Below, piece by piece: positions 4,752 through 34,947 of a stretch of DNA of 39,487 nucleotides. The position numbers and the translations under genes were made by a program. The notes beneath the pieces were generated by a model. It saw only the letters and a list, made by a program, of their open reading frames with translations, was not told the origin of the DNA and did no database searches. Source of the DNA: Acidobacteriota bacterium (lineage in GTDB: Bacteria; Acidobacteriota; Terriglobia; Acidiferrales; UBA7541). The number at the start of each line of letters is the position of its first letter. Within the stretch, counting starts at the first letter, position 1. The stretch is taken from positions 1 to 39,487 of the forward strand of contig QHYU01000146.1 of NCBI GenBank assembly GCA_003224235.1, written 5' to 3'.

Positions 4752-5603
4752 TTGCCGGTGGGCCTCCCAGTCGTGCTGCCTGCTCGACACCTGATTTTCT
4801 CGGACCTCGATGGCACGCTGCTCGATCCCCACACCTCCTCCTGGTCTGCCGCTGAGGAAGCGCTCCAGGAGATTGAGCGGAGGGGAGTGCCTCTGATCTT
4901 CGTCACCAGTAAGACCCGCGCAGAATTGGAAATCCTGCGGCGAAAGCTGTCGAACGCCCATCCCTTTGTCACTGAGAGAGGCGGCGGGATCTTCATCCCA
5001 GAGGGTTACTTCAATCTGCATGTCGAAGGGGCGCAGCGTGTGGCCCGCTATCACTGTGTTTCGTTTGGCCGCCTCTATGCAGAGGTCACCGCGGCCCTCG
5101 AAGCAATTGCCGCAGAGGTGGGAGCCGATGTCGTGGGCTTCCACCAGATGAGCACGCGGGAAATCGCACAGAATACCGGCCTTGGCCGCCGGCAAGCTGA
5201 ACTGGCCCGCCAGCGCGACTTCGACGAGCCGTTCTTCTTCGCCGGCGCCAGCGAGAGTGTAATCAACAAGTTCGTGCAAGCCGCCCGGCATCGCGGAATG
5301 GAAGTCACACAGGCCGGGCGGTTCTGGCATCTTTCTGCAGGCCATGCTGAGGGTCGCGCCGTGACTTACTTGGTGAAGCTCTACCGCACCGCTGTGCGTA
5401 GCCGGTTGCGCTCGGTGGCACTGGGCCATGGTTCAAACCACCTTTCTCTACTTTCGGCCGTAGACCAGGCGATATTGCTACCCCAGCCGGACGGCAGCTT
5501 CGATAGCAGCGTGTTATCGCGGCTACCCCACGTCACCCGGGGCCCGGCCCCCGGCCCCACAGGATGGAACCAGACAGTCCTCCAAGTCTTCAAGAGTCGC
5601 TGA
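4752..5603 (+). CDS. mannosyl-3-phosphoglycerate phosphatase-like HAD protein with altered motif IV
   Basis: A 283-aa HAD subfamily IIB protein resembling mannosyl-3-phosphoglycerate phosphatase (MpgP), which in other organisms yields the compatible solute mannosylglycerate. Motif I is intact (SDLDGTLLD, D18 and D20), motif II is FVTSKTR, and the family segments TERGGGIFIPEGYF and RFWHLSAGHAEGRA are present. Motif IV, usually GDxxND, reads GHGSNH: both metal-binding Asp positions are His226 and His230 (codons CAT and CAC). The motif III Lys position is Arg202. Activity may therefore be lost or changed. The start is TTG or one of the nearby GTGs; the domain begins by residue 14. No mannosyl-3-phosphoglycerate synthase gene lies in the window. 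Confidence 0.8.
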   Translation: MPVGLPVVLPARHLIFSDLDGTLLDPHTSSWSAAEEALQEIERRGVPLIFVTSKTRAELEILRRKLSNAHPFVTERGGGIFIPEGYFNLHVEGAQRVARYHCVSFGRLYAEVTAALEAIAAEVGADVVGFHQMSTREIAQNTGLGRRQAELARQRDFDEPFFFAGASESVINKFVQAARHRGMEVTQAGRFWHLSAGHAEGRAVTYLVKLYRTAVRSRLRSVALGHGSNHLSLLSAVDQAILLPQPDGSFDSSVLSRLPHVTRGPAPGPTGWNQTVLQVFKSR

Positions 5604-5886
5604 GTTACGGCGCAAGTTGGGAAGGCAAGTGGCAGGAGTGGGATACAGATTGCGCATGACAAGCCGCATACGCCACGGCAGCTAAGACCGGATGTGCTGG
5701 TAATACACTTAAGATACAACGGTTAGAAAAGATGGGGCCATCGGGGGAGGTTGGCACGCCAATTGCCCTTGCACCGCCGATTACGCTCTGGAATCGTCCC
5801 TCCGGGGCTCGCAACTTGGGCGCGGGTACTGGCCGGTTTTCTCGAAGCCACGAACCACGTGTGCGCTCACCAGGAGGATCTCCAGT

Positions 5887-6063
5887 ATGTCGCTGCTCCG
5901 CCGACTCACCGTTCCCGCCAGCGAATCGCACCTGGCAGTGGCTTTGGCCTTAGCGGCCGTGGCCATGAGCCTAATGCTGTGGGCCATTCTCTGGCAGTCT
6001 GACATCATTTCCTATCAGCGCGAAGTCATCCGTTGGATGTGGTCGTGGAAGTTCGGCGGCTAG
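5887..6063 (+). CDS. small single-pass membrane protein, 58 aa
   Basis: A 58-aa reading frame with an excellent ribosome-binding site (AGGAGG about 9 nt before ATG). The N-terminus is basic (MSLLRRL), residues about 16-37 form one hydrophobic helix, and the C-terminus is rich in tryptophan and basic residues (REVIRWMWSWKFGG). Positive charges flank both sides, so topology is unclear. No family is recognised. Ribosome-binding site quality and amino-acid pattern are the basis for calling it real. The 283 bp upstream of it hold no other feature I can support. Confidence 0.6.
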   Translation: MSLLRRLTVPASESHLAVALALAAVAMSLMLWAILWQSDIISYQREVIRWMWSWKFGG

Positions 6064-6156
6064 ATTGCCACACGCATAAGAACGTCACTACGGCAAAGAC
6101 CCGTCTGACCTCCCGCCATACTGCGCCGTGATAGCGGCGGAATTCTTCGTGTTTCA

Positions 6157-6185
6157 TTGACAGGTTTGATCTCCGCCTCTACTAT
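6157..6185 (+). promoter_or_regulatory. sigma-70-type promoter
   Basis: A perfect -35 TTGACA (6157-6162), a 17-bp spacer and the -10 TACTAT (6180-6185). Transcription would start near 6192 and run through a leader of about 200 nt to the secreted-protein gene at 6395. Confidence 0.6.
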
Positions 6186-6260
6186 GCAATCGTTCCTGCA
6201 CACCGAGCGTCGTGCAGAAGCTTGTGCGGGTCGTCCGCGAGTCAACAACCGAAGAAGTGA

Positions 6261-6377
6261 ATGAGATTCCCTCTGCAACAACAAATGCAGGAGCACCAGA
6301 GGAACAAGAGCCCGGCAGGAGATGAGGCGCTGGCCCAGCTCTACCTTGCCGGGGAGCCAAATCGAGCAACCCAGTGA
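6261..6377 (+). CDS. possible 38-aa leader ORF
   Basis: An ATG-started frame of 38 codons in the leader of the transcript from 6192. It ends 17 nt before the gene at 6395. The peptide is Gln-rich at its start (MRFPLQQQMQEHQRNK) and otherwise unremarkable. The ribosome-binding site is weak. It could be a translated leader or chance. Confidence 0.2.
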   Translation: MRFPLQQQMQEHQRNKSPAGDEALAQLYLAGEPNRATQ

Positions 6378-6394
6378 CCATCAGGAGCAAGGAA

Positions 6395-6700
6395 ATGAAA
6401 AGATGGAAGGAGAAAGTATTGGTCGTGGCGCTTGCCCTGGCAGCGAGCCCGCTTCTCAGCACCCCCCAAAGCACCACTCCGGGACAGGCCAACACGTCGA
6501 ATCCGCAGACATCCAGCCAGAGCCGGGACCGAGTCCAACAGCAGGAAAGCCAACGGAAGCGGAACAGCCGACGAAGGCAACGGCGAAACCAAAGGCGTCG
6601 CCAGCTCCGGCAGCGGCGCGCACACACCCGCAAGCAACCTCCGAGGCCTGCCTCGAGTGTGCGTCAGGGAACCCCAGCCGAACGCGGGACGAGGATTTAA
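6395..6700 (+). CDS. small secreted Arg/Gln-rich protein, 101 aa
   Basis: The ATG at 6395 has AGGAGC/AAGGAA upstream. The first 25 residues are a classic signal peptide (MKRWKEKV, then VVALALAASPLLS). The mature part is low-complexity: Ser/Thr/Gln-rich first, then densely Arg/Gln-rich (about residues 50-80). The gene has a clear promoter at 6157 and a strong terminator at 6811. A second frame over the same bases, open to 6804, gives a Pro/Ala/Lys-rich low-complexity sequence, so a frameshift after the signal peptide cannot be excluded. Function unknown; an envelope or periplasmic polycationic protein is possible. Confidence 0.5.
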   Translation: MKRWKEKVLVVALALAASPLLSTPQSTTPGQANTSNPQTSSQSRDRVQQQESQRKRNSRRRQRRNQRRRQLRQRRAHTRKQPPRPASSVRQGTPAERGTRI

Positions 6701-6810
6701 GCAAGGCGAGTGTAATCGACTCGCCCAGCAAAGAACCACCACGAAAGGAGAGCCCTCTCTGTTCTTATTTTCAACCGCGAGAATTCGTGCCATTCGGAGT
6801 CTAGAAAGCG

Positions 6811-6848
6811 AATCGGGGAGCCTGGCAGCTCCCCGATTGGCCACTTTT
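6811..6848 (+). terminator. strong Rho-independent terminator
   Basis: A perfect 11-bp stem (6811-6821 with 6828-6838, AATCGGGGAGC/GCTCCCCGATT) with a 6-nt loop, followed within 7 nt by six T residues (6845-6850). It closes the transcript that begins near 6192. Confidence 0.9.
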
Positions 6849-7082
6849 TTGCTGCCGTCGCGGCGTCGTTAGGGCGTCGCCGGCGGCGCGCACCGCATGA
6901 GCGGTGTGTTCAAGTTTGGTTTCGTTCTAAGCCCGGTGGAGTCATCTCTCCTCCGTAGCCTAACTTCATGTCTCTTCTACTCCTGCGCTAGGCCGATTGC
7001 AAGACATAAGATTTCCCGAGAGAAGTAAGAGAAACCCCCCGAACGGGATCGGAAAGGCGCTCGCCGAAATCGGCGGCTGCCG

Positions 7083-7808
7083 CTAGCGGATGAAGAGACC
7101 TTCGCGGAGCTGGTCGCGGCCCACAAAGGTCTTCGAGGAGTGGAACCGGCTGAACAGGTTCTGAATTTCGCGATTCTGAAAGATGCGCTGCGCCGGGAAC
7201 AGGGCAGGAGAAGGAAGGAGCTCGAAGTTCTGGACATTGACGACGCGGTAGCGGAAGAAGCAGTCCGGCTTGCGGCTGTGGAAGATGGCCAGGATGACGC
7301 CGCCCTCTTTGATAAGTTCGGTTAGCCGCGTTACCACACGCGGCACCAACTCGCCGTCCAGATAGTCAAGCAGGTCCCAGGCTAGCACGGCGTCGAAGGT
7401 GTCCGGGGAGTACTGCAAGCTGTTGCTCAGGAAGCGTTCGGCGCGCGCGGCGGGCGTCATCTCCACCGCGTCCATCCCCGGAGCTATCTCACGCAGGCGG
7501 TCCTCCTCAACCCGCAGAAACTCCTTCCAAGCCCCCAGCAGGTCTTCGGTGTACACCTTGAAGCCGCGCTCGACAAAGAAGCTGACCGTGGTCTGCCACA
7601 CTGGCCCAAGATCGAGCAGGCTGCCATTGCCAATGCCGTTCAGGTGCCAGAGGAATTCCTTCAGGCCGTTGGAGAGGCGAACACCTAGCGCATAGGCGGG
7701 GCCGGATCGGTCACCCACCGGGGTGCCAGTGGGGTGTTTGTCTCCACCGGCGCTCGGTGTCGCAGCCTGGCGGTCGTGAGCCACGCGCAACTTGTTCAGC
7801 AGACCCAT
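7083..7808 (-). CDS. SAM-dependent methyltransferase-like protein
   Basis: A 241-aa protein with a class I methyltransferase (Rossmann) pattern. SLLDLGPVWQTTVSFFVERG (about residues 63-82) stands where the SAM-binding motif I would be, followed by KVYTEDL (motif II acidic end) and FDAVLAWDLLDYLDGEL (motif IV/post-motif). The motif I glycine pattern is weaker than the usual DxGxGxG, so catalysis is not assured. The ATG lies 3 nt after the stop of the bactofilin gene, so the two are translationally linked. The C-terminus (about residues 190-241) is conserved-looking and may bind a partner. Confidence 0.7.
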   Translation of the reverse strand: MGLLNKLRVAHDRQAATPSAGGDKHPTGTPVGDRSGPAYALGVRLSNGLKEFLWHLNGIGNGSLLDLGPVWQTTVSFFVERGFKVYTEDLLGAWKEFLRVEEDRLREIAPGMDAVEMTPAARAERFLSNSLQYSPDTFDAVLAWDLLDYLDGELVPRVVTRLTELIKEGGVILAIFHSRKPDCFFRYRVVNVQNFELLPSPALFPAQRIFQNREIQNLFSRFHSSKTFVGRDQLREGLFIR

Positions 7809-7811
7809 GAC

Positions 7812-8333
7812 TTATTCCGGTGAATCCTCGGCAGGGTTGGAGAAGCGTCGCTTGGAATCGGTAGAAGTCGTCATCCCGCCGGCTCGCGCGGCGCGCGCCT
7901 CCTCGGCGCGAACGACATCGATCTTACCGTGAAACACCGCGCCCTCTTCGATGGAAACGCGACGGGTCACAATGTCCCCTTCGGCGTCACCGGTGCGCTC
8001 GATCTGCACCCGCTCGCGGCCACGGAGCGCGCCAGTCACCTTACCCTGCACGGTGATCTCGCGCGCATCGATATCCGCCGTGACGCGGCCATTGGGACCC
8101 ACGGTCAAGTTTCCGTCGGCTAGGCGGATGGTGCCCTTCACCTCCCCATCAATGAAAAGGTCTTCGTTGCCGGTGAGTTCTCCTTTGATGACTATCGCAC
8201 TACTGACATGGCCGGCTGCAGTCCGCGGTTCATTCGGTGACGTGGCCAGGTTCTGCGTCCGCTCGGGCGCTGGGGAAACCACACGATCACCTGGCGTGGG
8301 AGTTGGCTTGGGCTCGTCCTGTTTGCGCCACAC
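7812..8333 (-). CDS. bactofilin family polymer-forming protein
   Basis: A 173-aa bactofilin (DUF583). After a Pro/Thr-rich disordered N-terminus (residues 1-45), the central region carries the repeating short beta-helix pattern (IVIKGELTGNEDLFIDGEV, LTVGPNGRVTADI, ITVQGKVTGAL, VSIEEGAVFHGKI). A charged disordered tail follows. Bactofilins self-assemble into nucleotide-free filaments near the membrane that organise cell shape or envelope enzymes. The start is GTG with GAGGAGG 5 nt upstream. It is the first gene of a two-gene operon with the methyltransferase-like gene and has a good promoter at 8407-8435. Confidence 0.93.
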   Translation of the reverse strand: MWRKQDEPKPTPTPGDRVVSPAPERTQNLATSPNEPRTAAGHVSSAIVIKGELTGNEDLFIDGEVKGTIRLADGNLTVGPNGRVTADIDAREITVQGKVTGALRGRERVQIERTGDAEGDIVTRRVSIEEGAVFHGKIDVVRAEEARAARAGGMTTSTDSKRRFSNPAEDSPE

Positions 8334-8406
8334 AGAAACCTCCTCAAATGGGACGCCCCCGCCTGGGACACCCCCACCTTCAATGAGAGAGGGCTACTGC
8401 CGCGGG

Positions 8407-8435
8407 AATATAGTACAACGCGGCGGGCATGGCAA
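8407..8435 (-). promoter_or_regulatory. sigma-70-type promoter of the bactofilin operon
   Basis: On the minus strand TTGCCA (8435-8430), a 17-bp spacer, then TATATT (8412-8407). Transcription would start near 8400, about 66 nt before the GTG start. Confidence 0.65.
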
Positions 8436-8456
8436 CCTGAATTGGCGACCGGAGGG

Positions 8457-9176
8457 CTATCCCCGTGCCTGAGAGGCAACACTTGCCCTGGAGGCCCAGG
8501 GATAGCACGGCTCCCGCAGGGATACCTGCCGGCCGGCCGCAGGAGATTCTTTATGCCGCAGTTCCCAGAAGGCCACGAGGGTGCCCCATGTTTCGCGGAA
8601 GAAGATCTTGACCCCCTGGCGGGAGTGCCACCAGCCGTCCGGGTCGTAGTAGGTGTCCCGCGCAGGCGTCACCCGCACCTGAACTGCTGGAGGGAAGACC
8701 CGTCGAAAAATGTAGCGCGCGCGCCGGGTGTGATAATTCGAGGTTACAACGACAACGCGACGCCAGCCGCGCTCCACCACGAGCCCTCGCAGGGCTTGCG
8801 CTTCCTCGCGGGTGCTGTCGGATGTATGCGGGAAAACGACTACGGAGTTACCCGGCACACCCCGCTCAAGCAGGTCGCGCCGCATCAACTCCGAGATGCC
8901 AGCGTAGCGTCGAAGCTGGCGCCCGCTGGCGACGACGCGCGGCGCCCAGCCAGCGTGATAAAGCTCGGCCGCCCGCACCGCGCGATCGGCAAGGTAGTTG
9001 TCATCGCTCAGAAGGAGGATGGCGTCGGCGGCTTCCAGCGGCTCGTTTACCACCCAGAACTCCCCCGCAGCTCGCAGTAGCGGTTGCCGCAGCAAGTACA
9101 ACACGCCGCACAACGACAAGAGAGCCAAAAGCAGCACCAGCTTGGAAAGGATCCCGCCGTGCTGGCCGGATGTCAT
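8457..9176 (-). CDS. YdcF/ElyC-like DUF218 membrane protein
   Basis: A 239-aa protein with an N-terminal membrane helix (about residues 10-30) followed by a DUF218 domain: ADAILLLSDDNYLADRAVRAAELY, PHTSDSTREEA and VTSNYHTRRARYIF are the characteristic strands and the STREEA/YHTRR active-site-like segments. Family members (ElyC, SanA, YdcF) act in envelope polysaccharide or peptidoglycan precursor metabolism in an undefined way. Its ATG overlaps the galT stop by 4 nt (ATGA), so it is co-translated with galT. The C-terminal 30 residues look unstructured. Confidence 0.85.
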   Translation of the reverse strand: MTSGQHGGILSKLVLLLALLSLCGVLYLLRQPLLRAAGEFWVVNEPLEAADAILLLSDDNYLADRAVRAAELYHAGWAPRVVASGRQLRRYAGISELMRRDLLERGVPGNSVVVFPHTSDSTREEAQALRGLVVERGWRRVVVVTSNYHTRRARYIFRRVFPPAVQVRVTPARDTYYDPDGWWHSRQGVKIFFRETWGTLVAFWELRHKESPAAGRQVSLREPCYPWASRASVASQARG

Positions 9177-10153
9177 CCCCCAGCGTCCATCTGGCGCAGC
9201 CGCTCGGCGGCCTGCTCAGGCAAGAGATCGTTGAAATAAACTTCCTTGATGCTGTAGGACTTGCTGCGGGTCTGTACGATGGGCAGGATTTCGATGTGCC
9301 AGTGATAATCGTCGACGATGGTCTTCCAATAGTCGGTGAGCTCCCCCTTGGTGTGGATGGTGTTGGGCGCGGTGTGGACCACCAGATGAAAGGCCTGTGA
9401 AACCTTCTCGAGCCGGCGGAGCATGCGGCCGAGCAACGCGGCGAGATGACGGCGGTTGGCGCCCGGACGCGGCTGCTCGAACAGATGGTTGTGCTTGCGA
9501 TTGATCAGCCAGACCTCGTAAGGCACGCGCGCAGCATAGGGACAAAGCGCCACATAATCGCCCTGGCTGTCCACGACGCGCTTACCCTTCCTCTCTTCCT
9601 GCCGCACGATGTCGCAGAATACGCAGCGTTCCTTCTGCCGGAACCACTCCCGCGAGGAGCGCAGTTCGTACAGGATCCGCCGCGGGACGAAGGTAGTGCC
9701 GGTGAGCTGCGAATGAGAGTGCGCCCACTCTTCGCCGGCAAGAGCCCCGCAGTTCTTGAACACGGTGACGTACTTGATTCGCATGTCGCGCTTTAGGTCG
9801 GCGATCCGCGACGCGTAAGCGGCCAGGACCGGCTCGATCTGCTCATCGCTCATCTCGGAAAGTTTCCGGTTGTGCTCGGGGGTCTCCACGATGATCTCGT
9901 GGGCACCCACAGGGCGCATCCGGTCATAGATGCCGTCGGCCTGTCGTCCGGGCTCGCCTTCGATGCGATACAGCGGATTGAAGTGCGGGAGGACGCGGAT
10001 TTGCCAGGGCCCCTGCGGCGGCAACGTCAGCAGCGCCGCATGCTCAGCCTCGTGGCCAGGGCAAAGCAAACATCCGTCCGGAGCAGCCGAAGCCTCATCC
10101 GGGTGGCCCACAACCACCCAACTGCGCGTGATGGGATCCTTACGAAGTTCCAT
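9173..10153 (-). CDS. galT: galactose-1-phosphate uridylyltransferase
   Basis: A 326-aa GalT of the HIT superfamily, the Leloir-pathway enzyme that exchanges UDP between glucose-1-phosphate and galactose-1-phosphate. Zinc ligands CLLC (C28, C31) and a second pair CVFC (C177, C180) are present. The catalytic motif is H145-S-H147-S-Q, where most relatives have HPHxQ; H147 corresponds to the uridylylated histidine. The C-terminal half carries the second HIT-like repeat, with DYHWHIEILP. ATG start in its own promoter context; it overlaps the DUF218 gene by 4 nt. No galK or galE is nearby. Confidence 0.92.
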   Translation of the reverse strand: MELRKDPITRSWVVVGHPDEASAAPDGCLLCPGHEAEHAALLTLPPQGPWQIRVLPHFNPLYRIEGEPGRQADGIYDRMRPVGAHEIIVETPEHNRKLSEMSDEQIEPVLAAYASRIADLKRDMRIKYVTVFKNCGALAGEEWAHSHSQLTGTTFVPRRILYELRSSREWFRQKERCVFCDIVRQEERKGKRVVDSQGDYVALCPYAARVPYEVWLINRKHNHLFEQPRPGANRRHLAALLGRMLRRLEKVSQAFHLVVHTAPNTIHTKGELTDYWKTIVDDYHWHIEILPIVQTRSKSYSIKEVYFNDLLPEQAAERLRQMDAGG

Positions 10154-10193
10154 TTTGGAGGATGCCCTGAGTTAGCTCCATGAAAGAAGCGCT

Positions 10194-10222
10194 CTTATAA
10201 CGCAGTGCGAGGTCACCCGCAA
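10194..10222 (-). promoter_or_regulatory. sigma-70-type promoter of galT
   Basis: On the minus strand TTGCGG (10222-10217), a 17-bp spacer, TATAAG (10199-10194), followed by a leader of about 35 nt to the galT ATG. Confidence 0.55.
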
Positions 10223-10269
10223 GCCGCGAACCTCTGCATTTGTGCGTCGTCAGCAATCAAGAAAAAGGC

Positions 10270-10734
10270 CTATCGGGTGTATCGCGCCGGCGTGGGGCCC
10301 TCTTCAAGCCGGTGGCGGTCCCAAATTGCACCCTCACGGCTGTAACTAGCCATTTCAAAATCCTGCGTCAGCTCGAGGCAATCCGTCGGACAGGCGTCCT
10401 CGCACAGGCCGCAGAACATGCAGCGCGAAGTATCGTAAGTGAACGTGGTCAGAACCTTGCGGCGCGTCGCTTCGTCGCGCTCCCAGCCCACCACGATCAA
10501 GTTTTCCGGACAGGCCAGCGCGCAAAGATTGCAGGCAATGCAGAGCGTCTCGCCGGTTTCGGGATTGTTGTTCAAGCGCGGCGCGCCGCGGTAGCGTTCG
10601 GCCACCAGCGGCCGCTCGAGCGGATACTGCTCGGTGTAAATCTTCTTGGGATTCTGGTAGCGAAAGGTCAGGGCCAAACCTTTGAGCAAATCAACCTGGA
10701 AGATGCGACCCAACAATTCCGTAAGATTCGACAT
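10270..10734 (-). CDS. nuoI: NADH-quinone oxidoreductase subunit I
   Basis: A 154-aa NuoI, the peripheral-arm subunit of complex I that carries clusters N6a and N6b. Two 4Fe-4S motifs are intact: CIACNLCALACPE (C65, C68, C71, C75) and CMFCGLCEDACPT (C105, C108, C111, C115). The N-terminal segment TFRYQNPKKIYTEQYPLERP is typical of NuoI. No other nuo gene lies in the window, so it is separated from the usual operon. It could serve a split complex I or be a second copy. Confidence 0.93.
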   Translation of the reverse strand: MSNLTELLGRIFQVDLLKGLALTFRYQNPKKIYTEQYPLERPLVAERYRGAPRLNNNPETGETLCIACNLCALACPENLIVVGWERDEATRRKVLTTFTYDTSRCMFCGLCEDACPTDCLELTQDFEMASYSREGAIWDRHRLEEGPTPARYTR

Positions 10735-10742
10735 ACGAAGCT

Positions 10743-10771
10743 AGTTTGTGGCCGCGCAGCGGAATTGTCAA
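10743..10771 (-). promoter_or_regulatory. promoter candidate for nuoI
   Basis: A perfect TTGACA (10771-10766), a 17-bp spacer and a weak -10 CAAACT (10748-10743). It ends 8 nt before the nuoI ATG, so the transcript would have almost no leader. Confidence 0.4.
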
Positions 10772-10947
10772 GGCGCGAACGACGCCGCCAACGCCGGCTG
10801 GCGAAGACTGACGAGCTTCCAGCGGGCAGCAGCCAGCCTTCAACGGCGCCAGAGAAGTGCGGTGGGGCCGCCGGCTCAAGCTGCCGCGTTCCTCGGGCCT
10901 AGGCAAGTTGCGGCGAAGCACTGCCCTTCACTGGCCTTTGCGCGCGG

Positions 10948-10956
10948 TGGTAGAAT
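10948..10956 (+). promoter_or_regulatory. extended -10 element, leaderless start of the GNAT gene
   Basis: TG-G-TAGAAT (10948-10956) is an extended -10 element. The hexamer ends 7 nt before the ATG at 10964, so transcription should begin on or next to the start codon. No convincing -35 is present. Confidence 0.5.
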
Positions 10957-10963
10957 CCCGGCC

Positions 10964-11497
10964 ATGGCTACCCCAGCAGCCGGACCACGCCTGACGTTTC
11001 GACCCGCCCGGGACGAAGACGCGCCCGGCCTGCGCGAGATCTTCAACGAAGCCGTGCAGGAAGGCCGGGTGACCTTTGAGACCGAGCCGCGCAGCCTGGA
11101 AGAACAGCGCCGCCTGCTTGCCGGAGCCTCTCAAGATCCGCGACACCCCATCCTGGTGGCCGAACTGCGTGGTTGGACGGCCGGTTGGATCGCCATCGAG
11201 CGCTATGACCGGCGGCCACAGCTCGACGACGTCGGCGAAGTGAGCGTGTTTGTGCGGCGAGAGTTCCGCAACTACGGTGTCGGCCGGCAACTGATGCGGG
11301 CGGTGCAGAACGAGGCGCAGCGCCTGGGCTACCGCAAGCTGGTCGGACATGTCCTGGCCGACAACTACGACAGCCTGCGTCTCTGCCGGGCCACCGGCTG
11401 GCGCGAGGCCGGACGGCACGAGCGGCACGCACGGCGTGAAGGTAGACTCCTAGACGTCATCGTCGTGGAGTATATGGTCGCGGCGCCCGCCAGCTGA
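10964..11497 (+). CDS. GNAT N-acetyltransferase, phosphinothricin-acetyltransferase-like
   Basis: A 177-aa GNAT protein. LTFRPARDEDAPGLREIFNEAV opens the fold; SVFVRREFRNYGVGRQLM (about residues 90-107) holds the acetyl-CoA pyrophosphate loop R-x-x-G-x-G; YRKLVGHVLADNYDSLRLCRATGW is the C-terminal part, as in the PAT/bar and MnaT group. That group acetylates phosphinothricin, methionine sulfone or similar small amines; the substrate here is unknown. ATG 10964 was chosen because the fold starts about 8 residues later and an extended -10 lies just upstream. A longer frame from 10748 has no support. Confidence 0.88.
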   Translation: MATPAAGPRLTFRPARDEDAPGLREIFNEAVQEGRVTFETEPRSLEEQRRLLAGASQDPRHPILVAELRGWTAGWIAIERYDRRPQLDDVGEVSVFVRREFRNYGVGRQLMRAVQNEAQRLGYRKLVGHVLADNYDSLRLCRATGWREAGRHERHARREGRLLDVIVVEYMVAAPAS

Positions 11498-11621
11498 TTC
11501 CATTCATCGGTTCACGAAGTTCCGCTCCTCCACTCATCAAATGTCCAGCCTCTGCCCCTGCCGCGCGCCTCTGCTCTACGCCTTTGCCCTTTGGCTGTTA
11601 GCGCGGCAGTTTGCAGACCCG

Positions 11622-11630
11622 TGCTATCCT
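11622..11630 (+). promoter_or_regulatory. extended -10 element, leaderless start of tadA
   Basis: TG-C-TATCCT (11622-11630) ends 6 nt before the GTG at 11637, the same geometry as at the neighbouring GNAT gene. The start codon would be at the transcript's 5' end. Confidence 0.5.
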
Positions 11631-11636
11631 CAGGCC

Positions 11637-12101
11637 GTGCCCGCGAATGACATTGAGTACATGCGGATGGCGCTGGAAGAAGCGCATGCGGCGGCCCAGG
11701 CGGGTGAGGTCCCTGTGGGCGCCATCTTGGTCATTGACGACCAAGTGGTGGCGCGAGCTTCAAACCGGACCATTACCGACTGCGACCCCAGCGCGCACGC
11801 CGAAATCGTCGCGCTGCGGGCGGCGGCGAAGGAGTTGGGCAACTATCGCCTCGGCGACGCGATGAGCCACGCGACGCTCTACGTGACACTGGAACCCTGT
11901 TGCATGTGCGCCGGCGCCGTGGTACAGGCGCGCATTGCTCGGTTGGTTTACGGCTGCGATGACCCCAAGGGTGGCGCTGTGCGCTCGTGCTTCGCTGTGC
12001 TTGACCATCCGGCGCTCAACCACCGTGTCGAAGTGACCTCCGGGATCCTGCTCGAGGAGTGTGCTGCGACGCTTCAGGCGTTTTTCGCCGCGCGAAGATG
12101 A
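11637..12101 (+). CDS. tadA: tRNA-specific adenosine deaminase
   Basis: A 154-aa zinc deaminase that converts A34 to inosine in tRNA-Arg(ACG). The catalytic motif HAE (H54, E56) and PCCMC (C88, C91) supply the zinc ligands and proton shuttle. GNYRLGDA, TLYVTLEPCCMCAGA and ARIARLVYGCDDPKGGA are typical TadA segments. The GTG at 11637 is preferred over an ATG at 11541, because the upstream 32 codons do not resemble TadA and an extended -10 lies inside them. Its tRNA substrate gene is at 1-77. The 170 bp to the next tRNA hold a short GA-rich stretch (12104-12140). Confidence 0.95.
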   Translation: MPANDIEYMRMALEEAHAAAQAGEVPVGAILVIDDQVVARASNRTITDCDPSAHAEIVALRAAAKELGNYRLGDAMSHATLYVTLEPCCMCAGAVVQARIARLVYGCDDPKGGAVRSCFAVLDHPALNHRVEVTSGILLEECAATLQAFFAARR

Positions 12102-12271
12102 AACAGGGAGTTGAGGATGTAGAGGAAGTAGAGGAAGCAGCAGGCGTGGCAACGCGACGCGATCAAATTGGACGCAACAATCGTGATCGGGCTCCATCCT
12201 TGCCATCTGCGCTGAGCCGTCGATTGCTCAGAGCGGGCACCTCTGATACGCTAAAAGAGGCATTGGGGCGT

Positions 12272-12364
12272 GGAGAGGTGTCTGAGCGGTTGAAAGAGCC
12301 CGCCTCGAAAGCGGGTAGCCTGGCAAAACTGGGCTCGTGGGTTCGAATCCCACCCTCTCCGCCA
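12272..12364 (+). tRNA. tRNA-Ser (anticodon CGA)
   Basis: A complete 93-nt class II tRNA with encoded CCA. The acceptor GGAGAGG (12272-12278) pairs with CCTCTCC (12354-12360), G is the discriminator, the anticodon stem CCCGC/GCGGG encloses CTCGAAA (anticodon CGA), and a long variable arm and canonical TTCGAAT T-loop follow. The last 25 nt recur at 32806-32830 on the opposite strand. More A/T-rich accessory DNA (toxin-antitoxin) begins immediately after it. Confidence 0.97.
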
Positions 12365-32805: not shown

Positions 32806-32830
32806 TGGCGGAGAGGGTGGGATTCGAACC
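32806..32830 (-). other. tRNA-Ser 3'-end fragment (attachment-site scar)
   Basis: These 25 nt, read on the minus strand, equal the last 25 nt of the tRNA-Ser at 12272-12364: T-loop, T-stem 3' side, acceptor 3' strand, discriminator and CCA. Past the T-loop the sequence diverges at once, so it is a fragment, not a gene. This is what an integrating element leaves at the far end from the tRNA. By its orientation, the element would extend rightward from here. Confidence 0.75.
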
Positions 32831-32847
32831 TATGCTGTTTAAGCGAT

Positions 32848-32869
32848 GTTTGCGTTTGCTGGCGTTTGC
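32848..32869. repeat. triplicated GTTTGC next to the tRNA-Ser fragment
   Basis: GTTTGC occurs at 32848-32853, 32854-32859 and 32864-32869, starting 18 bp from the tRNA-Ser fragment. Short repeats beside an att core are typical of integrase arm sites; here that is inference. The stretch 32870-33026 is A/T-rich and holds no gene I can support. Confidence 0.35.
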
Positions 32870-33026
32870 TTCGGTACCACCCTTTAACTTCTTGAAACTA
32901 TTTAAGTTGAGCACCTGTAAACCTCTGTGAACCCTATCTTTGCCCGCAGGGTGAACATCATCAAATCAGCACAAAATGGTAGCAAATGTAGCAAGAATCT
33001 TCGAAAGGATTTGGGCCGACTAGCAA

Positions 33027-33956
33027 TCATATCCGCACTCGCGCCCGGATTTCCTTAGTCTTTTCCGTGAACTTCGGTTCGTCCTTCCAACGGGTTTCTA
33101 TCTGGCGCAAGCGTTTCATAGCATCCGGATCTCCTTTCAATCTCCTGCGGAGCGTCCCACCAGATTTGATTTTGCTCAGGCGATACAGCCACATGTAGTC
33201 TTTATTTTCCTTGTGCGCCGGTCTATGGTCCAGAGCACAACATTTGGGCGAACAGTACTCTTTTCGCCCGATTCTCTCCGGCAACATGAGCTTATCGCAG
33301 CCGAGCCTCTTGCATATTCGGATCGGCAAACGCTTGGGCGGGTCATCAACATATTTGAAAATAAACTTGCAGACGGGGGTCATGATCGACGCGAACCTGA
33401 CCTCTTTGACAAAGTAAAGAAAAGGGCCCTTGTCTTCGTCGAAGTCACCGAGGCTTGCGATAGGATCTTCGTTGTAGTCGATGCGCCAGTCTTCCCCGTG
33501 CGCGTTAACTTCCAAGAATTTGAGAGCCTCGAGTCGTATTTCAGGATGCGATTTCGGCTGGCACAACCACAACAGCAGGTTCTTTAAGGCCTTCTGATAA
33601 TGAGAAGCCAGCGAGATCAGATCCCGCTTTCGCGCACCACTTAGCTCCGAGAGATAGAAGAAGTCATCATTCTTTCCCAGCTCTGACAGCCTAAACTCCG
33701 TCAGTTCGGGGCCGGGCGTCAGTTCATAAAGAACTGTTAACAGATTTGGGTAGGCCTTAGCATCGATGGATAAATCAGCATTCACATACCGAACGATACC
33801 CGTCCAAACGCGATGTTCCTGCCCCGGACCTGACGGATGCAAACTCTCTTCTCGCCGGCGAATCTCCTGCATGAGGGACTCTACCTGGCGCAACGCGGCC
33901 TCCGCCTTGCGGCGCTTGGTCTCATCCACCTGTGGCTGTGATTGTTGTAGCGTCAT
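33027..33956 (-). CDS. accessory protein with C-terminal zinc-finger-like motif, 309 aa
   Basis: I do not recognise the family with certainty. The N-terminus (about residues 10-45) is a charged coiled coil (KRRKAEAALRQVESLMQEIRR). The middle is mixed alpha/beta, with no enzymatic motif seen. At about residues 220-245, RICKRLGCDKLMLPERIGRKEYCSPKC matches a CGNR-like treble-clef pattern, C-x4-C-x(14)-C-x3-C. The rest is basic (RLSKIKSGGTLRRRLKGD), compatible with nucleic-acid binding. It starts at an ATG, divergent from the HTH gene at 34058 across about 100 bp of A/T-rich DNA. Base composition and context mark it as island DNA. Confidence 0.7.
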   Translation of the reverse strand: MTLQQSQPQVDETKRRKAEAALRQVESLMQEIRRREESLHPSGPGQEHRVWTGIVRYVNADLSIDAKAYPNLLTVLYELTPGPELTEFRLSELGKNDDFFYLSELSGARKRDLISLASHYQKALKNLLLWLCQPKSHPEIRLEALKFLEVNAHGEDWRIDYNEDPIASLGDFDEDKGPFLYFVKEVRFASIMTPVCKFIFKYVDDPPKRLPIRICKRLGCDKLMLPERIGRKEYCSPKCCALDHRPAHKENKDYMWLYRLSKIKSGGTLRRRLKGDPDAMKRLRQIETRWKDEPKFTEKTKEIRARVRI

Positions 33957-34004
33957 CCCGACCTGCTCTTATCCGCCTTACAGGTAAGTAGCGTACTCCA
34001 TCAC

Positions 34005-34010
34005 TATAAT
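34005..34010 (+). promoter_or_regulatory. consensus -10 in the divergent intergenic region
   Basis: A perfect TATAAT lies 47 bp before the HTH gene. No good -35 sits at 16-18 bp. The surrounding 33957-34057 is the A/T-rich promoter region between two divergent island genes. Confidence 0.35.
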
Positions 34011-34057
34011 ATTTACAATAGCGAGATTGATTGAGACAATCATGAAGACCCGCGACG

Positions 34058-34330
34058 ATGGACACTATTCAACAACCCGTGCAGCCAATATCGACAATTT
34101 CCGAATCGCTACTATCGCCTCGTGGTCTACGCATCACGCAAGCCGCAAGATACGCAGGCGTCAGTACTTGGTTCATCCGTCAAGCTATCTGGGAAGGCCG
34201 CCTCAAAGCCAGGCGTTGCGGCAAGTTTGTAATCATTCTTCGCGATGAGCTTGACCAGTTCCTTGAGAATCAGCCGCCAGTTGAGCCTTCCTCGGCAGCA
34301 TGGCTTGCCCAGCGCCGCAGTGCCGCATAG
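34058..34330 (+). CDS. excisionase-like helix-turn-helix protein, 90 aa
   Basis: A 90-aa protein with a central winged-helix/MerR-like domain (about residues 24-70): RITQAARYAGVSTWFIRQAIWEG, then RLKARRCGKFVIILRDELDQFLE. This is the pattern of the HTH_17/excisionase family, which bends DNA for integrases or acts as a small regulator. N- and C-terminal tails are short and disordered. It ends 59 bp before the tRNA-Pro fragment at 34390, the position expected for a recombination directionality factor near an attachment site. The cognate integrase is not in the window. Confidence 0.75.
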   Translation: MDTIQQPVQPISTISESLLSPRGLRITQAARYAGVSTWFIRQAIWEGRLKARRCGKFVIILRDELDQFLENQPPVEPSSAAWLAQRRSAA

Positions 34331-34389
34331 GCGCCCTGTGTCTTCCCGGAGCCCTGCCAGCCCCCGAAATTTGAGTAACGCGAATCTAA

Positions 34390-34434
34390 TTCGGGACCAC
34401 GAGGTCGGTGGTTCAAATCCACTTGCCACGACCA
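34390..34434 (+). other. 3' half of a tRNA-Pro (CGG), attachment-site scar
   Basis: The 45 nt begin with the anticodon loop TTCGGGA (anticodon CGG), then CCACG, variable AGGTC, T-arm GGTGG-TTCAAAT-CCACT, acceptor strand TGCCACG, discriminator A and CCA. Each segment has exactly the length found in E. coli tRNA-Pro(CGG). The five bases before the loop (TCTAA) cannot pair with CCACG, so the gene is cut precisely at the anticodon loop. Tyrosine integrases commonly cross over there. The full tRNA is not in the window. Confidence 0.8.
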
Positions 34435-34531
34435 TTCTTTTCGAGGGGCTATCTCGGACTCCTGGTCTTCCTCCACACCACTGTCGGCGAAACTGCGGCG
34501 TTCAACACGAGGGGATTCAGAGAGAAGTTCG

Positions 34532-34558
34532 TGCGTTCGATCCCCACCGCCCCTACCA
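34532..34558 (+). other. tRNA/tmRNA 3'-end-like fragment
   Basis: These 27 nt end in ACCA and contain TTCGATC in T-loop position, followed by CCCACCGCCCCT as a T-stem/acceptor 3' strand. The T-stem has one mismatch (GTGCG with CCCAC). The pattern is close to bacterial tmRNA (ssrA) 3' ends as I remember them. The region upstream does not fold into a tRNA. Identity is uncertain. Confidence 0.4.
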
Positions 34559-34695
34559 GCCTTCTCATTTTCTTCCAAGGACTTGCGAAACCCGCGAGGC
34601 AGCAAAAGGCAGCAGTATGGAGTGGGTAGTGTCGGCCTTCGGATTCGAAGGATCACGGCACGGATGGCAAGCCGACCATGATCACTAGAAGGGAA

Positions 34696-34749
34696 TGGTG
34701 CGACGGAGAGCAGCGGGAACCTCCGACCTGTGGTTCCGGAGACCAGCGC
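34696..34749 (-). other. degenerate tRNA-Arg(CCG)-like 3' half
   Basis: On the minus strand: a stem CTGGT, loop CTCCGGA (anticodon CCG), ACCAC, variable AGGTC, GGAGG, a non-canonical T-loop with one extra base, then CCGTCGC, A and CCA. The anticodon stem pairs at 4 of 5 positions. The T-loop lacks TTCRANN, so it is a decayed copy. Between 34435 and 34947 I see no gene, only these tRNA-like pieces. Confidence 0.45.
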
Positions 34750-34947
34750 CAGAATGCTATGTTGATGATTCTTCTTGCTCGGTCCTGCACCTTGTAGCAC
34801 GGTTTTGTACGGTATTCGGCGCTTATCGGACCCGAATCGGACCCAAGTTTTTGCGCCGCTGGAAAGGCAATTTCGTTTTGTGCAGCCAATAATCGAGCAA
34901 TTTGCAGAAGTCCGTGCTACCCGGAAAAGGGCGAGCAGCCCGCCAAG

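What the first reader, a model, noticed from the sequence alone, without database searches (positions are those of the whole stretch)
32806..34749. Cluster of several truncated tRNA-like 3' ends within 2 kb
Within 1.95 kb there are a tRNA-Ser 3' end (minus), a tRNA-Pro 3' half (plus), a tmRNA/tRNA-like 3' end (plus) and a degenerate tRNA-Arg(CCG)-like half (minus). One element normally leaves one scar. Several scars from different tRNA families suggest serial integrations, or an element that carries an array of alternative attachment sites or tRNA mimics. The last two pieces are less certain than the first two.
Basis: partly seen in the sequence, partly recalled or inferred. Interest (0 to 1): 0.7.

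Follow-up and report, generated by a model that had tools for sequence, protein, structure and literature searches.

The report
Stacked tRNA attachment scars of islands
A 2-kb patch of a bacterial chromosome holds the 3' ends of four different tRNA genes, three of them beside the kind of short repeats that integrases bind: the worn-down ends of mobile islands, and part of the stack also sits inside an apparently intact island of another genus, so such stacks may record how islands change their target gene.

Summary
All four pieces are tRNA 3' ends. They score 40-62 bits; the best score in 60 shuffles of the whole window is 32.8. They are the only non-intact tRNA pieces in 39.5 kb. The third is not tmRNA but tRNA-Lys(TTT), 94%. 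The others are tRNA-Ser (25/25), tRNA-Pro(CGG) (93%) and a worn tRNA-Arg(CCG) (81%). Two end at the T-loop and two at the anticodon loop, the known crossover sites of tRNA-specific integrases. Ser, Lys and Arg each have a significant 10-11-bp direct repeat next to them; the Lys, Arg and Pro flanks recur beside tRNA genes or scars in relatives. The Arg flank ('arm') occurs beside Arg(CCG), Arg(TCT), another Arg, Pro(TGG), Thr-like and Ala-like sequence, so one arm family has changed targets. An excisionase-like gene remains; no integrase does. A relative of another genus carries a colinear stack, selC-Lys-Arg(TCT), just inside an apparently intact 16-kb selC island; another has Pro-Lys. Best reading: a decayed stack of attachment sites, part of it inherited as a unit on a mobile island. 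Scars and tandem islands are known; compact stacks of different targets on one element look like a new variant. Whether the stack still works is untested.

The parts
32806..32830 (-). 3' end of a tRNA-Ser (T-loop to CCA, 25 nt)
   Evidence: 25/25 identical to tRNA-Ser(CGA) 12340-12364 of the same contig and to tRNA-Ser(GGA) C115
32851..32870 (-). 10-bp-period direct repeat AGCAAACGCCAGCAAACGC beside the Ser scar, putative integrase arm-type site
   Evidence: longest such repeat in the flank, not reached in 500 shuffles
33027..33956 (-). 309-aa ORF of unknown function with a weak CGNR-zinc-finger-like stretch, probable cargo
   Evidence: Pfam zf-CGNR E 0.012, below cut-off; no PHROG or NCBIfam match
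34058..34330 (+). 90-aa excisionase (Xis)-like HTH_17 protein
   Evidence: TIGR01764 excisionase family 32.8 bits over cut-off 28.8; HTH_17; phrog_66 excisionase
34390..34434 (+). 3' half of tRNA-Pro(CGG), anticodon loop to CCA
   Evidence: 93% over 45 nt to a relative's gene, 87% to own gene C61
34435..34490 (+). conserved flank 3' of the Pro half
   Evidence: window 34390-34490 is 81% over 102 bp to the region starting in an intact tRNA-Pro of G053; flank score 29 against shuffle maximum 16
34524..34558 (+).
   Evidence: 94% over 35 nt; the gene is intact in G001 C42
34559..34690 (+). Lys-side arm with direct repeat GGCAGCAAAAGGCAGCA (34598-34614)
   Evidence: conserved next to Lys scars in G070, G011, G027, G025 and next to an intact tRNA-Lys in G013; repeat P = 0.004
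34696..34744 (-). decayed 3' half of tRNA-Arg(CCG)
   Evidence: 82% over 49 nt; score 30.5 against shuffle maximum 13
34753..34860 (-). Arg-side arm with 11-bp-period repeat GGGTCCGATTCGGGTCCGAT (34825-34844)
   Evidence: family of about 19 copies in G000, G001, G006, G009, G011, G017, G037, G067, G068, G070, next to different tRNAs; repeat not reached in 500 shuffles

Best explanation
The patch is the decayed remains of integrative islands that were inserted by tyrosine integrases into different tRNA genes. Each layer is a tRNA 3' end (crossover plus identity block) next to arm-type integrase binding sites. The layers are stacked: Ser at the left, Pro, Lys and Arg at the right. SHOWN: the four tRNA ends; their T-loop or anticodon-loop end points; direct repeats beside Ser, Lys and Arg; flanks shared with scars or intact tRNA genes of relatives; one arm family next to several tRNA targets; an excisionase-like gene but no integrase; a colinear Lys-Arg stack just inside an apparently intact selC island of another genus and a Pro-Lys pair in a further genome. 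INFERRED: that the right-hand stack came in as a unit on one island; that stacks arise when an island acquires a new target (new integrase/att module or off-target insertion) and keeps the old attachment site near its end, or when islands pile up and excision between like sites removes the bodies; that nothing here is active now.
For: Pieces and chance level. Pro and Arg begin at the anticodon loop, Ser and Lys at the T-loop, the two attP classes of Islander (PMC4383910). Period-10/11 direct repeats beside Ser, Lys and Arg; the selC island of G070 carries the same repeat type at both ends, GGCGGCAAAAGGCGGCA beside selC and GGCGGCAAAAAGGCGGCA between integrase and selC scar, and its selC arm is homologous to its Lys arm (score 28, shuffle maximum 15). 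Arg-type arm next to Arg(CCG) in G000, G001 and G067, Arg(TCT) in G070, an Arg in G011, Pro(TGG) in G037, Thr-like in G006 and Ala-like in G067, all above shuffles. Lys-type left arm directly before Lys scars in several relatives. Window 34532-34856 aligns colinearly over 329 bp (64%) with G070 C78. That stack lies between intact selC and a 24/24 selC 3' end 16 kb away, preceded by an integrase (PF00589 70.5 bits) and an HTH_17-type protein (by sequence). Pro-Lys in the same orientation in G027. Foreign att features are about 5.5 times denser within 500 bp of Lys scars than elsewhere in 18 loci (4 vs 7, P = 0.014, window excluded). The sister species lacks the patch at this NTPase gene and has an intact tRNA-Arg(CCG) with a convergent integrase 15 nt away.
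Against: No integrase and no intact target tRNA lie beside the patch, so island boundaries cannot be drawn. The sequence between Pro and Lys is not conserved between window and G027 (score at shuffle mean), so that pair could be independent. The colinear Lys-Arg match is only 64%, and the tRNA at the Arg position differs (TCT versus CCG). The Pro flanks show no significant direct repeat. The Ser scar has no arm match elsewhere and is inverted relative to the nearest tRNA-Ser. The P = 0.014 rests on four events and on loci picked by Lys hits.
Confidence: 0.75

Rival explanations
1. Independent serial integrations and deletions: each scar was left by a separate island; nearness reflects an insertion hot spot, not inheritance of a stack.
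For: Scars of a single type are common in the order, and same-target tandems occur (tRNA-Pro with four further halves in G054; two Pro(TGG) scars 12.9 kb apart in G037). The Pro-Lys spacer is not conserved.
Against: Colinear Lys-Arg stack in another genus inside an island; Pro-Lys in the same order and orientation in G027; enrichment of foreign att features near Lys scars.
Confidence: 0.3
2. A functional multi-target attachment array: the element keeps several tRNA 3' ends so that different integrases, its own or others', can insert or mobilise it.
For: A stack is retained inside an apparently intact, integrase-bearing selC island; arms with recognisable direct repeats persist beside Ser, Lys and Arg.
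Against: No integrase in or beside the window; the Arg half is decayed (81%); the Pro arms lack the repeat; no excision or use was tested.
Confidence: 0.12
3. Assembly artefact: short repeats (tRNA 3' ends) joined unrelated contigs of a draft genome.
For: The own genome breaks at repeats of this kind: contig C122 ends inside tRNA-Lys(TTT) and C131 has a gap at tRNA-Arg(CCG). The Ser piece is exactly a 25-nt repeat.
Against: Flanks of Lys, Arg and Pro are diverged homologues of flanks in other genomes, and Lys-Arg is colinear in an independent genome without N runs there. Three of the four pieces are diverged from the intact genes, so they are not exact-repeat joins.
Confidence: 0.04
4. tRNA-like structures or mimics with an RNA function, or chance similarity.
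Against: They are halves or shorter; two are on the opposite strand from the other two; no Rfam match; end points and flanks fit attachment sites; scores far above shuffles.
Confidence: 0.02

Closest known systems
tRNA/tmRNA-targeted genomic islands with displaced 3' tDNA fragments (Islander, PMC4383910)
   Same: 3' tRNA fragments marking island ends, T-loop and anticodon crossover classes, tyrosine integrase, tandem arrays
   Different: Islander resolves tandem arrays at one tDNA, each island with its own integrase (125 tandems of >=2, 4 of >=3); here four different tDNAs leave scars within 2 kb and no integrase is left
tRNA gene fragments as attR remnants (PMC9897764)
   Same: partial tRNA genes left by integrative elements; N runs in assemblies also split tRNA genes, as at C131 here
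   Different: the examples read there are single fragments; here a compact stack of different isoacceptors
ssrA-specific tandem islands of Dehalococcoides (PMC3146451)
   Same: many scars from serial integration, some islands without an integrase (cis-mobilizable elements suggested)
   Different: one target (ssrA) and a CcrB-like (serine-type) integrase; here several tRNA targets and tyrosine integrases
Accretion and cis-mobilizable elements (composite genomic islands)
   Same: island bodies joined end to end and shortened by recombination between att sites
   Different: accretion normally uses one att specificity (own knowledge); here specificities differ and bodies are nearly absent

Membership tests
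tRNA-targeted integrative island remnant (attachment scar) | 3' tRNA fragment matching a tRNA gene well above chance | tested here: met
   40-62 bits against shuffle maximum 32.8
tRNA-targeted integrative island remnant (attachment scar) | fragment begins at the anticodon loop or T-loop crossover site | tested here: met
   Pro, Arg at the anticodon loop; Ser, Lys at the T-loop (classes)
tRNA-targeted integrative island remnant (attachment scar) | arm-type integrase sites flanking the core | tested here: inconclusive
   period-10/11 direct repeats beside Ser, Lys, Arg, not beside Pro; integrase binding itself cannot be tested here
intact tRNA island | integrase gene within the element | tested here: not met
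   PF00589 hits in the genome are on other contigs; only a Xis-like gene here
intact tRNA island | cognate intact tRNA gene at the other end, same orientation | tested here: not met
   only tRNA-Arg(ACG) and an inverted tRNA-Ser on the contig
tandem accretion array | repeats of one att specificity, each bounding an island | tested here: not met
   four different tRNA families
tmRNA (ssrA) scar | piece 3 matches the ssrA 3' end | tested here: not met
   tRNA-Lys(TTT) 94%; own tmRNA no better than shuffles
functional multi-target attachment array | integrase-dependent use of more than one site | not testable with these tools
   needs an experiment

The most novel reading that the evidence does not exclude
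Integrative islands of this bacterial order keep an ordered, layered series of attachment sites for different tRNA genes at one end, outermost the present target and inward former targets, so that the end of an island is a readable record of integrase target switching and may still let other integrases move the island.
Probability: 0.2. Interest if true: 0.75.

Novelty: new variant of a known kind. Interest (0 to 1): 0.5.

Why it matters
How tRNA-specific integrases change their target gene is, as far as I know, poorly documented. Here one recognisable arm family is found next to several different tRNAs, and stacks of old sites persist inside islands. If stacks are inherited, the order of targets an island lineage has used could be read from sequence, and programs that pair one tRNA with one like fragment would miss or misplace such islands.

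Tried and rejected
Rfam with relaxed thresholds does not see the pieces. tmRNA identity of piece 3 rejected. The 25-bp Ser repeat with the intact tRNA-Ser at 12272-12364 as attL/attR of one island: rejected, inverted orientation. Arms as translated integrase tails with the bodies cut off: considered, but no integrase was found beside most Arg-type arms in the loci examined; read as arm-type sites instead. Loss of functional tRNA-Lys(TTT) and tRNA-Arg(CCG) from the genome: rejected, their 5' halves lie at a contig end and at a scaffold gap. The 309-aa ORF found no relatives in genome contigs. Arm patterns and a Pro-Lys pattern are absent from viral contigs; an exact Lys-arm pattern is absent from genome contigs.

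Full report
WHAT WAS CLAIMED.

THE OBSERVATION. The window is most of contig C128 (41,066 bases) of a 4.57-Mb draft genome. With 3' halves of the genome's own tRNAs, plus Lys(TTT) and Arg(CCG) from the sister species, blastn finds in the window only the two intact tRNA genes and four further pieces: Ser 32806-32830 (-), 25/25; Pro(CGG) 34390-34434 (+), 87%; Lys(TTT) 34524-34558 (+), 94%; Arg(CCG) 34696-34744 (-), 82%. With a wider library Pro rises to 93%. Scores are 40-62 bits; the best in 60 dinucleotide shuffles is 32.8, and the clustering has P about 5e-4 under uniform placement. Piece 3 is tRNA-Lys, not tmRNA: the gene is intact in the sister species, and against the own tmRNA the piece scores no better than shuffles.

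WHAT THEY ARE. Pro and Arg start at the anticodon loop; Ser and Lys start at the T-loop. These are the two crossover classes of tRNA-specific islands (Islander lists 2083 anticodon and 1836 T-stem sites, PMC4383910). Ser, Lys and Arg have an 8-9-bp direct repeat of period 10-11 next to them, rarely or never reached in shuffles of the same flank (0, 2 and 0 of 500); the Pro flanks do not. Such repeats are what integrase arm-type sites look like; binding was not tested. Between Ser and Pro lie a 309-aa ORF without clear family and an excisionase-like protein above the TIGR01764 cut-off. No integrase is on this contig.

THE ARMS ARE FAMILIES. The Arg-side flank (34753-34860, minus) belongs to a family of about 19 copies in ten genomes of the order. 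Directly after it come tRNA sequences above shuffle level: Arg(CCG) in the window, in further contigs of the own genome and the sister species, and in G067; an Arg in G011; Pro(TGG) in G037; Thr-like in G006; Ala-like in G067; and 15/15 nt of Arg(TCT) in G070. Some copies have no tRNA after them. So one arm family has been used with several targets. The Lys-side flank occurs next to Lys scars in G070, G011, G027 and G025 and next to an intact tRNA-Lys in G013, where a second Lys 3' end lies 2.4 kb on; a left Lys arm precedes Lys scars in further genomes. The Pro piece with 55 bp downstream matches the region starting in an intact tRNA-Pro of G053 (81% over 102 bp). The sister species has an intact tRNA-Arg(CCG) with a convergent 390-aa integrase (PHROG integrase E 1.2e-42) 15 nt from its end.

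THE STACK IS NOT UNIQUE. Window 34532-34856 aligns colinearly over 329 bp (64%) with contig C78 of G070, another genus: Lys end, Lys arm, Arg core, Arg arm, same order and orientation, with Arg(TCT) in place of Arg(CCG). There the stack lies just inside an intact selC gene. On the same strand 16 kb away are an integrase (70.5 bits to PF00589), an HTH_17-type protein beyond it (by eye), and a 24/24 selC 3' end; the selC arm repeat occurs at both ends, and no N lies in the selC-Lys-Arg stretch. This is an apparently intact selC island that carries Lys and Arg sites near its end; the contig has short N runs elsewhere. G027 has Pro then Lys in the window's order, 115 against 117 bp apart, but the spacer is not similar. 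G009 has an Arg-type arm, then a Lys arm and Lys end within 250 bp. In 18 loci chosen by Lys scars, window excluded, other att features are about 5.5 times denser within 500 bp of the scar (4 against 7 elsewhere, P = 0.014; few events).

HOW IT PROBABLY CAME ABOUT. Shown: attachment scars, changed targets of one arm family, a mobile island that carries a similar stack. Inferred: an island took a new target and kept the old site near its end; the window's right-hand stack (Pro, Lys, Arg) came in on such an island or was built by islands landing beside each other; excision between like sites and deletion removed the bodies. The Ser scar marks a further element on the left. The sister species lacks the patch beside the same NTPase gene.

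DRAFT-GENOME CAUTION. The functional tRNA-Lys(TTT) and tRNA-Arg(CCG) are not complete in the assembly: one is cut by a contig end, the other by a scaffold gap. This fits repeats breaking the assembly. The patch itself has no N run, and three of its four pieces are diverged, so a false join is unlikely except perhaps at the Ser piece.

COMPARISON WITH THE KNOWN. Displaced tRNA fragments, tandem accretion and many-scar loci are known (PMC4383910, PMC9897764, PMC3146451). What I did not find described in the papers searched is a compact stack of attachment sites for different tRNAs, part of it carried inside an island. That search covers only open papers.

VERDICT. Observation confirmed; interpretation partly supported; new variant of a known kind; interest 0.5.

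Noticed in passing
G000 C69:11644-11736 (L043): A Ser-like long-variable-arm tRNA with a GTT (Asn) anticodon, followed about 25 nt later by another tRNA-like 3' end that the tmRNA model also hits.
   Followed up: no
G000 C209:25066-25151 (L044): A Leu-like tRNA body with a GCC (Gly) anticodon.
   Followed up: no
G000 C231:20542-20614 (L046): A degenerate tRNA-Arg(ACG)-like sequence, probably another scar or pseudogene.
   Followed up: no
L110 (G067 C4) 8206-8320: A Gly(CCC)-like anticodon part joined to a Lys-like 3' end and the Lys arm: possibly a hybrid made by insertion of a Lys-type element into another tRNA.
   Followed up: partly
L112 (G054 C95) 5573-12302: Intact tRNA-Pro followed by four Pro 3' halves; the stretch holds heavy-metal-type genes and no integrase found, a likely non-autonomous tandem island.
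   Followed up: partly
G035 C2:377631-407548 (L192, L193): tRNA-Arg(CCG) and an identical 46-nt scar 30 kb away in the same orientation, integrase fragments at both ends: a likely island with a second one behind it.
   Followed up: partly
window 34270-34800 (-): A 176-aa open frame runs through the Arg and Lys arms and the antisense of the Lys and Pro pieces; probably spurious, the kind of frame that could mislead annotation.
   Followed up: no
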